Shown here piece by piece: positions 6,006 to 56,657 of a stretch of 64,000 bases of DNA (its first letter is position 1; every line of letters begins with the position of its first letter). The DNA lies in the NCBI GenBank assembly GCA_012295275.1, contig CM022672.1, positions 30,492,059 to 30,556,058 on the forward strand, written 5' to 3'. The notes beneath the pieces are model-generated. The model saw nothing but the letters and a program-made list of their open reading frames with translations, ran no database searches and was not told the origin of the DNA. This stretch comes from Chrysomallon squamiferum (taxonomy: Eukaryota; Mollusca; Gastropoda; Neomphalida; Peltospiridae). The position numbers and the translations under genes are program-made.

Positions 6006-6157
6006 TTAGCATGTACCAAATGAACAAGTTGATTTTTTTGTGTCCCAGACAGTTCCTGGGGGACAAGCAAACTTGTGACCTACACCTCTGAAACACATGA
6101 CGAAATGACCACAAGTCTTTCCAGCTATGAAGGCAACTCCTACTTTAGGACAGTCAT
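6006..6157 (-). CDS. Gene 1 terminal exon: CBM14 (peritrophin-A) domain
   Basis: 152 bp, starting in phase 1 after TTTTCAG and ending in TAA. Six cysteines are spaced 12, 5, 9, 12 and 4 residues apart, which fits the chitin-binding type-2 pattern. The aromatic core is visible (GHFVMC, then GTVWD). Confidence 0.9.
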
Positions 6158-9100
6158 CTGAAAAGTATGATAGTAAGCGATAAAAGCCTGTAATAGACAC
6201 ACTCATCAGCCCTATATGAATCACTGACAAATATTTTGTTAATTTATATTACTGATTTCTACAAATACAAAATTCTACTGTTTTAATAATCTCTGACTGT
6301 TTAATTTATAATAACTGAAGAATATTAAAATTGAAACAGAACACTCAGGAATGTATGTATGTGTGTATGTATATAACAAAATTATTAAATCATTTCTGTT
6401 TATGACCATCTTTGCTATTAATATGTTTTACACTCAGATCTAATTTTTCTATCTTCAGTAATTACCAACCAGGACCACATTTCTCTATGTTACAGGGAAC
6501 AGTTTTCACTTCAGTTGTTTCTCCTTCACATGACTTTCCACCATTTTTAGGAGCAGGATTATCACATGTTCTGCTTCTTGACTGGTTTTTGTATCCTGTT
6601 CCACACAATTTTGAACATTCAGTAAGATTCTTCCATTCTGACCAAGTACTCCAACCACCATCAACTGTTAATAATATAAATTTGTGTTTATGACTGACAT
6701 GAGCTTGGAAAAAAATGATATTAAAATTTAGACATAAACTTATCCCCGATCACCAAGTTTAGATTATAAGAATCTTGAATTTCCAGTGTTATTAATGAAC
6801 AGGAAAACCCAATTAAGATATACATTATTAATTACTAACCCGCACCACATTCCTCTATATTACAAGGAACATCTTTCACTTCAGTTGTGTCTCCTTCACA
6901 TGACTTTCCACCATTTTTAGGAGCAGGATTGTCACATGTTCTGCTTCTTGACTGGTTTTTGTATCCTGTTCCACACAGTTTTGAACATTCAGTAACATTC
7001 TTCCATTCCGACCAAGTACTCCAACCACCATCAACTGTTAATAATATAAATTTATAGTTATATCTGAACACTGCATTCAAAACAAATGAAATCAAAATTT
7101 AGACATAAACTTATCACAGATGACCTAGTTTAGATTATCAGAATCTTGAATTTCCAGTGTTATTAATCATAAAAAATAGTGTTAATGGTACCGTTTTTTT
7201 TATTTTATTTTGGTTTTGTTCCTACAATGGATTAGAAGTTGCAGTTAATCAGGAACAAGTTAACAGTTTAACTTTGTACCTGAATTAAAAGACTGCTAAA
7301 GATCTTTTTTGTTTGTTTTTAAAGATATACATTATTGACTACTAACCTGGACATGGCTCTGTATTACAGGGAACATCTTTCACTTCAGTTGTTTCTCCTT
7401 CACATGACTTTCCACCATTTGTAGGAACAGGATTATCACATGTTCTGTTTCTTGACTGGTTTTTGTACCCTGTTCCACAGACTTCTGAACATTCAGTCAC
7501 ATTCTTCCATTCCGACCAAGTACTCCATCCACCATCAACTGTTAATAATATAAATTTGTGTTTATATATCTGAACACTGCATTGAATACAAATGAAATTA
7601 GACTTAATCATAACAAATCTTAATGGCAGTTAAGTGAGAAAAAATAATAGTTTGATTTTAACTGAATTATAAGAAAAATGATAATTTAGTTTAAAACATC
7701 TGTTTTGAAGATATTCAGAAGAGATACCGTATTTTGTCATCAACTCTTGGAGCTAGTAATATTCTAAAGTAAATAATTAATTATTAAAACATTTTATGCT
7801 TTATCAACTTCAACACTTCATTTTTTGAACAGTGCTGTGTATTGTAAATAATGGATAAGTGTATATTAAATTACTTGGACATGCTTGCAGATTACAGCTG
7901 GATGTTTGGTTTTCAGTGTTAGATCCATTGCACCAATGTCCACCATAGGCAGGCACTGGATTAGTGCAAGTTCTGCTCCTGATTCCCACTTGAAATCCAC
8001 CTCCACAAGTTTTGCTGCATTCATCGTATGACCAATCTGACCAAGATGCCCACCCACCATCCACTGTAATATAAAGAGTATACGTACTTACCTACCACCA
8101 ACATATCTTCCTACATACATATATATATATATTTTAATATTCTTTTTCTTGAGATATACATTATTGACTACTAACCTGGACATGGCTCTGTATTACAGGG
8201 AATAGTTTTCACTTCAGTTGTTTCTCCTTCACATGACTTTCCACCATTTGTAGGAACAGGATTATCACATGTTCTGCTTCTTGACTGGTTTTTGTATCCT
8301 TTTCCACATAGTTTTGAACATTCAGTAACATTATTCCATTCCGACCAAGTACTCCATGCACCATCAACTGTTAATAGTATAAATTTGTAGTTATGGCTGA
8401 CATCATCGTGGAAGAAAATGAAATTAAAATTTAGACATAAACCTCTCACCGATCAACTAGTTTAGAGTATAAGAGTCTTGTATTTCCATTGTTGTTAATC
8501 ATACAAAAATAATCTTATTTGCTGGGGTTTTTTTATGGCTACAATGGACTAAAGGTTACAGTTGATCAGGGACAACTATAGACTTTAATTTTGTAATTCA
8601 GATAAAAGACTGCTAAACGTCTTTTTTGTAAAGATATACATTATTGACTACTAACCTGGACATTTCTCTGTATTACAGGGAACATCTTTCACTTCAGTTG
8701 TTTCTCCTTCACATGACTTTCCACCATTTTTAGGAGCAGGATTATCACATGTTCTGCTTCTTGACTGGTTTTTGTACCCTGTTCCACACAGTTTTGAACA
8801 TTCAGTAACATTCTTCCATTCCGACCAAGTACTCCATCCACCATCAACTGTTAATAATATAAACTTGTGTTCATATATCTGAACACTGCATTGAAAACAA
8901 ATGAAATTAAAATTGATCATAAAAAATCTTAATGGCAGTTAAGTGAGAAAAAATCGTATATTTATTTTAAATGAACTGTAATAAAATGATAATTTTGTTT
9001 AAAACATCTGTTTTGAAGATACTCAGAAGACATATCGCCGTTAGTCATCAACTCTTGGAGCTAGTAATATTCTAAAGTAAATAATTAATTATTAAAACAT

Positions 9101-55786: not shown

Positions 55787-56548
55787 CTAATCATAAATAG
55801 GATAATTAAGTTTATAACAAATGTAAATTACAGTTAAATGATTGAAGCATAGACTTTTGGCCTCATATTATGTCGTAGGAAGTAAGAACTTCAGTTGACC
55901 CACTAGGCTCTTTCTCCCTTCTGCAGCTACCTCATGACGTACTTATCAAATACAGTGCTATGTGGTTCTCTGAGTGTCAAAAGGTAAAGCAGTTTAAAGG
56001 ATTGTTCAGGGTTATTCACTGAAAAGTTTTATTTTTTTATTTTCATTTTTATTCTTTTGTTGTAGTGTTTTTGGTATTTATTTACTTATTTATTTATTTA
56101 TTTACTTATTTATTATTTATTTATTTATTTATTTTATTTTATTTTATTAATTTATTTTTGATATTTGTTTTTGTTATTTTATTTTTGTTATCACAAGAGA
56201 CAAAAAATAAATTGCAGACATTAAACAAAAGTTAAATGTCCTGAATAATCCGAACTAAATGCAGCTAAGAAATAACACTAATGCTGACTCCATTAAGTAA
56301 AAGAAAAGTGGACTAATGCTCTATTTAATATCCAAAGAAACTCGAGAAAAGCCAAACCATTTACGGTTGATCAGATTTGAAATATTTTATTAGTTTGTGA
56401 AAAACGAATTTTAATCAATTATAAAGTAACAAGATACATAAACCAATCCTTAGGAACTGTTAAGTTACAACTAAGGCTATCATCGTTGAGATATATTTAC
56501 TTTCACATGCTGCTCTGCAACAGAGTTGTATTGTTGAATTATACTTAC

Positions 56549-56657
56549 CTGCAGGTGGTGCCCTATAACGCCTACGACGGGCACTCCACCAATCCGCGAT
56601 GAATGCTTCAGTACAGACCAGTAAAACACATAAGTTTAACAGTGTAAACACTTTCAT
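56549..56657 (-). pseudogene. Gene 5 signal-peptide exon
   Basis: 109 bp, open, donor GTAAGT, ATG directly after CACAG. The signal peptide ends CTEA; the linker is Arg-rich and ends APPA. Intact in itself, but part of a broken gene. Confidence 0.75.

What the first reader, a model, noticed from the sequence alone, without database searches (positions are those of the whole stretch)
6006..56657. Tandem array of five TSP1-repeat genes ending in a chitin-binding domain
Seen: five same-strand genes with the same plan (signal peptide, n TSP1 exons, one CBM14 exon) and 9, 3, 16, 3 and 3 repeats. Known: TSP1 and peritrophin-A domains are each common in secreted animal proteins, and CBM14 binds chitin. 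Inference: a lineage-specific, fast-expanding family of chitin-anchored adhesive proteins. I know of no described family with this exact ordered plan.
Basis: partly seen in the sequence, partly recalled or inferred. Interest (0 to 1): 0.85.

Follow-up and report, generated by a model that had tools for sequence, protein, structure and literature searches.

The report
Tandem mollusc TSP1–chitin-binding gene cluster
Five neighbouring copies of a gene for a probably secreted protein, made of repeated adhesion-type modules and a chitin-binding end, sit side by side here; three copies look intact, and the same protein plan turns up in many snails and clams, so it looks like a local expansion of an existing but little-described mollusc family.

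Summary
Five minus-strand genes (window 6006-56657) each carry a signal-like exon, 9, 3, 16, 3 or 3 TSP1 exons and one terminal CBM_14 exon; all introns can be modelled as phase 1. Two corrections: gene E is a pseudogene (stops in two of three TSP1 exons; upstream region shared by A-D lost), and gene C has two frameshifted TSP1 exons. A, B and D are open. The array grew by nested duplication: a roughly 26-kb two-gene unit (B+C to D+E) and a 97%-identical three-exon block inside C. TSP1 exons form three classes, ordered alpha(1-3)-[beta-gamma(n)](1-2)-CBM14. The plan is not lineage-specific: 27 of 28 relatives examined have TSP1 repeats followed by CBM14, from 15 named gastropod and bivalve species, many annotated 'coadhesin-like' or 'hemicentin-1-like'; one Haliotis asinina protein has exactly the window's plan. 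Ten paper searches showed no description of the family. Most likely function: secreted chitin-anchored matrix or mucus protein; 'adhesive' is untested. Oddity: between B and D the CBM14 exon diverged about three times as much as the introns, though selection is not shown.

The parts
6006..12988 (-). Gene A: signal exon 12862-12988; nine TSP1 exons (11951-12142, 10855-11046, 9193-9381, 8656-8847, 8176-8367, 7875-8063, 7347-7538, 6840-7034, 6470-6664); CBM14 exon 6006-6157. Open frame of 668 aa, class order alpha2-beta-gamma2-beta-gamma3.
   Evidence: Spliced frame without stops; Pfam TSP_1 1.7e-54 and CBM_14 5.3e-6
18323..21156 (-). Gene B: signal exon 21075-21156; TSP1 exons 20239-20430 (alpha), 19389-19577 (beta), 18810-19001 (gamma); CBM14 exon 18323-18474. 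Open frame of 268 aa.
28207..38728 (-). Gene C: signal exon 38632-38728; 16 TSP1 exons between 38042 and 28690; CBM14 exon 28207-28358. Order alpha3-beta-gamma8-beta-gamma3. Exons T2 and T3 are frameshifted, so the full-length frame is broken as it stands.
   Evidence: CBM_14 E 3.1e-9
36801..36993 (-). Gene C TSP1 exon T2 (alpha class): 193 nt, frame lost near its 3' end.
34966..35158 (-). Gene C TSP1 exon T3 (alpha class): 193 nt, frame lost at a run of A; profile hit split into two pieces.
31292..34456 (-). Recent three-exon block duplication inside gene C (31292-32991 against 32749-34456, 97.1% identical); also seen as a 467-bp tandem unit, 5.6 copies, at 31787-34477.
44670..47431 (-). Gene D: signal exon 47350-47431; TSP1 exons 46526-46717 (alpha), 45743-45931 (beta), 45157-45348 (gamma); CBM14 exon 44670-44821. 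Open frame of 268 aa; duplicate of B.
   Evidence: B/D 89.6% over 3,959 columns including flanks
54150..56657 (-). Gene E, pseudogene: signal exon 56549-56657; TSP1 exons 55605-55786 (alpha, three in-frame stops, 182 nt), 55203-55391 (beta, open), 54618-54812 (gamma, in-frame stop); CBM14 exon 54150-54301. Upstream region shared by A-D is absent.
   Evidence: CBM_14 E 2.4e-9
18063..21971 (.). Segment holding gene B, duplicated as 44439-48253 (gene D). With C and E segments about 25.9 kb apart, it shows a tandem copy of a two-gene unit of roughly 26 kb.

Best explanation
The locus is a local tandem expansion of a molluscan family of secreted modular proteins. A signal peptide sends the product out of the cell. 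A rod of TSP1 modules (3 in B and D, 9 in A, up to 16 exons in C) binds glycans or other matrix proteins. The terminal CBM14 module fixes the rod to chitin. TSP1 exons are symmetric (phase 1-1), so unequal crossing-over can add or remove modules without breaking the frame, and rod length differs between copies. Shown from sequence: gene anatomy, domains, in-phase exon models, duplication history, open frames in A, B and D, broken frames in C and E, and the same domain order in many molluscs. Inferred: splicing, secretion, chitin binding, and use in a chitinous or mucous extracellular matrix (shell or periostracum, radula, gut lining, foot mucus). No data say which tissue. The rival readings below overlap with this one in part, so the confidences are not exclusive.
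For: Pfam TSP_1 and CBM_14 above cut-off in the three open spliced products. The model of the CBM exon (mean pLDDT 76.9, pTM 0.44) gives CBM14-type chitin-binding proteins in all of the first 11 Foldseek rows (chitotriosidase, Avr4, Der p 23, Der f 23, tachycitin, Aplysia EHEP, Blo t 12; that each is of this type is from titles or recall), at prob 0.89-1.00 but E only 0.03-1.1. All six CBM14 cysteine columns are invariant in the five copies although 22 of 49 columns vary (P 0.02 treating columns as equal). In-phase exons with GT-AG sites. No indels in 807 exon bases of B/D against 12 in 1,944 intron bases (5 expected, P 0.007). Last-gamma exons more alike than flanking 120 bp (0.935 against 0.775 and 0.851; 10 pairs); gamma pN/pS 0.42 (18 exons). 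Relatives: 27 of 28 with TSP1s then CBM14. Window alpha and gamma TSP1s group with 12 of 18 'last before CBM14' TSP1s of relatives (10 from named gastropods, 2 from unnamed records) and with none of 65 other TSP1s (support 87/68, below the strong level).
Against: No transcript, protein or binding evidence. B/D coding divergence is near neutral (dN/dS 1.1 overall), and the CBM14 exon diverges as fast as or faster than introns. Two of five copies are damaged. The other 6 of 18 'last' TSP1s, all four bivalve ones included, do not group with the window's. By eye 20 of 28 relatives have a Cys-rich N-terminal segment and 22 of 28 have two or more CBM14 hits; the window has neither.
Confidence: 0.7

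Rival explanations
1. Secreted chitin-recognition proteins of innate immunity, working like properdin or a lectin: the CBM14 binds chitin of fungi, parasites or ingested particles and the TSP1 rod recruits or oligomerises effectors. A rapidly changing CBM14 would then reflect changing targets.
For: Nearest solved structures by sequence are thrombospondin-1 and properdin. Two relatives carry the name 'properdin-like' or properdin's CBM14-bearing or TSP1 lists (P0036, P0022). In B/D the CBM14 exon has 25 changes in 152 bases against 101 in 1,944 intron bases (Fisher 1.5e-6), with 95.7% identity in the 300 bp upstream and 113 of 121 columns identical just downstream. Copy-number change and pseudogenes are common in immune families (general knowledge).
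Against: Nonsynonymous and synonymous rates in the CBM14 exon do not differ significantly (21 of about 112 against 4 of about 34.5 sites, P 0.44), so positive selection is not shown; a short old conversion tract explains it equally. Over 300 bp downstream the B/D identity is only 84.5% with 70 gap columns, as low as the exon; the homologous segment ends about 260 bp after the exon. TSP1 hits to properdin reflect TSP1 similarity in general. I looked for no immune partners.
Confidence: 0.2
2. Glue or pedal-mucus adhesive proteins: TSP1 rods cross-link glycoproteins and CBM14 ties them to chitin or GlcNAc-rich mucus.
For: TSP1 and chitin-binding type II domains both occur among limpet pedal adhesive proteins (PMC7333891, passages); TSP1 and invertebrate chitin-binding superfamilies are among those enriched in the Exaiptasia pedal disc (PMC6626399, passages).
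Against: In the limpet passages the two domains are on different proteins. Nothing in the window points to foot or glue expression.
Confidence: 0.2
3. The array is mostly decaying: E is dead, C damaged, and A, B and D are open by chance or only weakly used.
For: Stops in E, frameshifts in C; B/D dN/dS about 1.1; CBM14 exon identity between subfamilies equals that of the upstream intron.
Against: No exon indels in B/D (P 0.007); 668-aa open frame in A through 11 exons; Cys framework kept; alpha, beta and last-gamma TSP1 exons more conserved than their 120-bp flanks.
Confidence: 0.12

Closest known systems
Haliotis asinina 'properdin-like' (P0036, 202 aa)
   Same: Signal-like start, TSP1 repeats, one CBM_14 as the last domain: the same ordered plan, without a Cys-rich N-terminal segment.
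   Different: Only two TSP1s; its last TSP1 does not group with the window's gamma class.
Gastropod TSP1-CBM14 proteins named 'coadhesin-like', 'hemicentin-1-like', 'thrombospondin-2-like' or hypothetical (Littorina, Pomacea, Batillaria, Babylonia, Patella, Gigantopelta, Haliotis)
   Same: n TSP1 followed by CBM14; last TSP1 resembles the window's gamma exon and is followed by a similar CG-x-C-P junction; more than one entry per contig in Pomacea, Batillaria and Littorina.
   Different: Usually a Cys-rich N-terminal segment and two CBM14s; 3-7 TSP1s by my profile.
Bivalve TSP1-CBM14 proteins (Pecten, Argopecten, Mizuhopecten, Ylistrum, Saccostrea, Ostrea)
   Same: TSP1 array then C-terminal CBM14.
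   Different: Three CBM14s; the last TSP1s of the four placed in the tree lie elsewhere.
Thrombospondin-1 TSRs and properdin
   Same: Closest solved TSP1 arrays (E 6.2e-31 and 8.2e-30).
   Different: No chitin-binding domain; other partner domains (recalled).
Coadhesin / hemicentin / SCO-spondin names in databases
   Same: TSP1 arrays.
   Different: Such names on these records need reflect no more than TSP1 similarity; hemicentin and SCO-spondin proper have large other domains (recalled).

Membership tests
Molluscan secreted TSP1(n)-CBM14 proteins | N-terminal signal peptide | tested here: inconclusive
   MK-[hydrophobic]-TEA start in all five first exons, by inspection only; no signal-peptide predictor was available.
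Molluscan secreted TSP1(n)-CBM14 proteins | Two or more TSP1 modules | tested here: met
   Pfam TSP_1 above cut-off with 8, 3 and 3 stretches in A, B and D; 34 exons by own profile.
Molluscan secreted TSP1(n)-CBM14 proteins | CBM_14 C-terminal to all TSP1s | tested here: met
   fold agreement.
Molluscan secreted TSP1(n)-CBM14 proteins | Last TSP1 shares ancestry with the relatives' last TSP1 | tested here: inconclusive
   Groups with 12 of 18 such domains and none of 65 others, support 87/68; 6 of 18 lie elsewhere.
Typical gastropod form of that family | Cys-rich N-terminal segment (about CG-x-F-G-W-x-R-C) and second CBM14 | tested here: not met
   Absent from A, B and D; also absent from P0036.
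CBM14 (peritrophin-A) domain | Six-cysteine framework and curated profile score | tested here: met
   Scores 26.9-37.6 against cut-off 22.1; six Cys invariant in five copies.
CBM14 (peritrophin-A) domain | Binds chitin | not testable with these tools
   Needs a pull-down.
Properdin / thrombospondin | Family-specific partner domains (properdin N-terminal domain; thrombospondin C-terminal domain; recalled) | tested here: not met
   Pfam scan of A, B and D at E 0.01 listed only TSP1-type families and CBM_14.

The most novel reading that the evidence does not exclude
The array is a chitin-targeting system whose binding end diversifies while its TSP1 rod is copied and lengthened: in the B/D pair the CBM14 exon changed about 3.8 times as much as the 300 bp of intron before it and 2.5 times as much as the 120 bp after it, and rod length runs from 3 to about 16 modules by frame-neutral exon gain. 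This would be an arms-race or self/non-self chitin-recognition family in molluscs.
Probability: 0.1. Interest if true: 0.55.

Novelty: new member of a known kind. Interest (0 to 1): 0.33.

Why it matters
It shows that a TSP1-array plus chitin-binding plan, present in databases under borrowed names such as coadhesin-like, hemicentin-1-like and properdin-like, is widespread in molluscs. Symmetric phase-1 exons would let it change rod length quickly. The array offers a compact system (duplicates with introns about 95% identical, a dead copy as control) to test whether the chitin-binding end is under diversifying selection.

Tried and rejected
The idea that the plan is unique was rejected. A search with only the last TSP1 plus CBM14 of the long gene A (by the tool's length rule candidates of about 367-1169 aa) listed 24 proteins, none with PF01607 in the precomputed Pfam column, so no relative as long as A with this plan was found that way. 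Gene conversion from A, C or E as source of the divergent B or D CBM14 exon was not supported: B and D each differ from A, C and E by 20-23 of 152 bases; conversion from an unseen copy stays open. Rfam found nothing at gathering scores; ARAGORN with the bacterial code found no tRNA. Pfam on nine other ORFs gave no family above cut-off. Ten paper searches showed no description of a TSP1-CBM14 mollusc family (searches returned none; of the rest I saw listings, and passages of three papers). The species was not identified: highest listed identities were 55%, 58% and 52%, each over part of the query.

Full report
What is there. Six-frame translation and profiles built from a few exons (five TSP1, three CBM14, two signal) find, on the minus strand, 34 TSP1 exons, five CBM14 exons and five signal-type exons in five ordered sets. 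Gene A spans 12988-6006 (9 TSP1), B 21156-18323 (3), C 38728-28207 (16), D 47431-44670 (3) and E 56657-54150 (3). Pfam confirms TSP_1 in sample exons of A, B and C and CBM_14 in the last exons of A, B, C and E, and both in the spliced products of A, B and D. In the models every TSP1 exon has an AG acceptor and GT donor between phase-1 introns. 31 of 34 have lengths divisible by three; the exceptions are C-T2, C-T3 and E-T1. Donors were picked in phase; in A-T9, C-T9, C-T16 and E-T3 another GT nearby fits the consensus better. A (668 aa), B (268 aa) and D (268 aa) are open from ATG to stop. An AATAAA lies a few tens of bases after the stop codons (by eye). A pyrimidine-rich stretch and AG stand immediately before all five ATGs, so an untranslated first exon upstream is possible.

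Damage. E has three in-frame stops and an out-of-frame length in its alpha exon, one stop in its gamma exon, and an upstream region unrelated to A-D beyond about 120 bp; I call it a pseudogene. C has two frameshifted alpha exons; one lies in a run of A, so an assembly error is possible. Because the exons are symmetric, skipping them would keep the frame, but nothing shows that this happens.

Exon grammar. By sequence the TSP1 exons form three classes: alpha (VNGGWSSW...), beta (VDGGWASWSDWSYDECSKTCGGG...) and gamma (VDGGWSTWSEWKN.TECSK.CGTGYKNQ...). The tree, which used the window domains of A, B and D only, recovers the three sets (4, 4 and 7 rows). Orders are A: a2-b-g2-b-g3; B, D, E: a-b-g; C: a3-b-g8-b-g3 (C and E classed by eye). 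So the long genes hold extra copies of alpha, of gamma and of a beta-gamma block.

Duplication history. Self-comparison (matches of 400 bp and more) shows B/D 89.6% over 3,959 columns at an offset of about 26.4 kb, C/E segments at about 25.9 kb, A/C 84% over 4,269 columns, and inside C a 97.1% copy of a three-exon block (31292-32991 against 32749-34456). Tandem Repeats Finder sees the same as a 467-bp unit, 5.6 copies. The simplest reading is that a two-gene unit (B with C) was copied as D with E, and exon arrays changed separately.

Rates. B and D: exons 748/807 identical against introns 1847/1944 in one alignment, and 59 of 807 against 101 of 1,944 differences in a second. Nei-Gojobori dS 0.072, dN 0.080, ratio 1.1. 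There are no exon indels where about five are expected from introns (P 0.007). The CBM14 exon alone has 25 of 152 differences (Fisher against introns 1.5e-6; the four other exons do not differ from introns, P 0.13-0.73), between 95.7% identity in 300 bp upstream and 113 of 121 columns just downstream. Against this, the 300 bp downstream taken whole is 84.5% with 70 gap columns, where the duplicated segment is about to end. The nonsynonymous excess over synonymous is not significant (P 0.44), so selection is not shown. Between the other genes the CBM14 exon is about as divergent as the intron before it; C/E is the exception (98.7% exon, 92.6% intron). Over pairs, gamma pN/pS is 0.42, alpha 0.67 and beta 1.4 (30 of 34 TSP1 exons used, the broken C-T2, C-T3, E-T1 and E-T3 left out; pairs are not independent).

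Relatives elsewhere. A search with B gave 62 proteins, three with CBM_14 in the precomputed Pfam column (P0007, P0020, P0036). A search with an alignment of B, D, P0036 and P0007 gave 1,374, of which 120 are listed and 25 of those carry CBM_14, P0007 among them. I examined those 25 plus P0020, P0036 and P0136 (28 in all) with local profiles, whose seeds include stretches of some of these same proteins: 27 have TSP1s first and CBM14 after them, and one (P0139) has CBM14 first. The sources' own names give 15 species: Haliotis rubra, H. asinina, H. cracherodii, Littorina saxatilis, Pomacea canaliculata, Batillaria attramentaria, Babylonia areolata, Patella caerulea, Gigantopelta aegis, Pecten maximus, Argopecten irradians, Mizuhopecten yessoensis, Ylistrum balloti, Saccostrea echinata and Ostrea edulis (that these are gastropods and bivalves is recalled); five of the 28 have no named source. 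Only P0036 has the window's clean plan (signal-like start, TSP1s, one terminal CBM14). Of the 27, five show a single CBM14 by my profile: P0036, P0020 (which runs on for about 200 residues), and P0136, P0161 and P0180, which look like truncated or faulty models. Pomacea (four entries that look like two genes annotated twice), Batillaria (two, with near gene numbers) and Littorina (four entries, two of them isoforms of one gene) share one contig length each, which suggests clustering there too; positions were not checked.

Is it the same family? A tree of 98 TSP1 domains (18 of the 28 relatives plus A, B and D; 63 columns; domain hits under 46 residues dropped) puts window alpha and gamma with 12 of 18 'last before CBM14' TSP1s and with none of 65 others, at support 87/68, below the program's strong level; beta falls among the rest. 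The six other 'last' domains (four bivalve, and P0020 and P0036 of Haliotis) lie elsewhere. Shared descent with the gastropod form is likely, not proven.

Fold and chemistry. The CBM exon model (pLDDT 76.9) is a small beta fold whose first 11 Foldseek rows are CBM14-type chitin-binding proteins (E 0.03-1.1, no row under 0.001). PDB sequence hits of B are led by thrombospondin-1 and properdin for the TSP1s, with two chitinases at the CBM end (E 0.0045 and 0.0093). Spliced A, B and D have 14, 3 and 2 N-glycosylation sequons, 19, 6 and 6 WxxW motifs and 2, 2 and 1 CxxS/TC motifs, no RGD, and pI 8.2-8.7 without the first 18 residues; that WxxW and CxxS/TC can be mannosylated and fucosylated is recalled.

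Function. TSP1 plus chitin binding points to the extracellular matrix or mucus. Passages read: limpet pedal adhesive holds TSP1 and chitin-binding type II domains on separate proteins (PMC7333891); tubeworm chitin tube proteins are enriched in both domains (PMC8476170); the sea-anemone pedal disc is enriched in both superfamilies (PMC6626399). These make matrix, tube or glue roles plausible and do not choose between them. An immune role stays open. Nothing here measures expression.

Verdict. The reading as a lineage-specific family with a new plan is too strong: the plan is widespread in molluscs. What is particular here is the exon grammar, the high repeat numbers, the single CBM14 and the nested duplications.

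Noticed in passing
window 58170-59806, minus strand: Tc5-type DNA-binding (E 4.6e-11) and DDE_1 (E 3.9e-37) pieces of a pogo/Tigger-like transposase in separate reading frames, upstream of the array (the third ORF, 58170-58787, had no Pfam match; 'pogo/Tigger-like' is recalled).
   Followed up: partly
window 18323-18474 and 44670-44821: CBM14 exon of B and D is 16.4% divergent between 95.7% identical upstream intron and a 93%-identical 120 bp downstream; neither copy matches A, C or E better.
   Followed up: partly
beta TSP1 exons, e.g. 19389-19577, 30065-30253, 45743-45931: Beta exons differ little at synonymous sites (mean pS 0.049) although the 120 bp upstream is 57% identical on average (87.8% downstream), which hints at homogenisation or exon-level constraint.
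   Followed up: partly
window 28207-28358 and 54150-54301: CBM14 exons of damaged C and dead E are 98.7% identical (2 of 152 differences), more than their upstream introns (92.6%) or downstream flanks (80.6%), which may mean recent conversion.
   Followed up: no
window 4539-4820 and 26750-27031, minus strand: Two similar 93-aa ORFs downstream of A and C inside the duplicated segments, no Pfam match.
   Followed up: partly
window 42766-42965: A run of exactly 200 N, probably an assembly gap, between C and D.
   Followed up: no
window 3145-3374, 5017-5153, 30293-30428: Long TG, TTA and TC repeats; the TC run lies in the intron just upstream of a beta exon of gene C.
   Followed up: no
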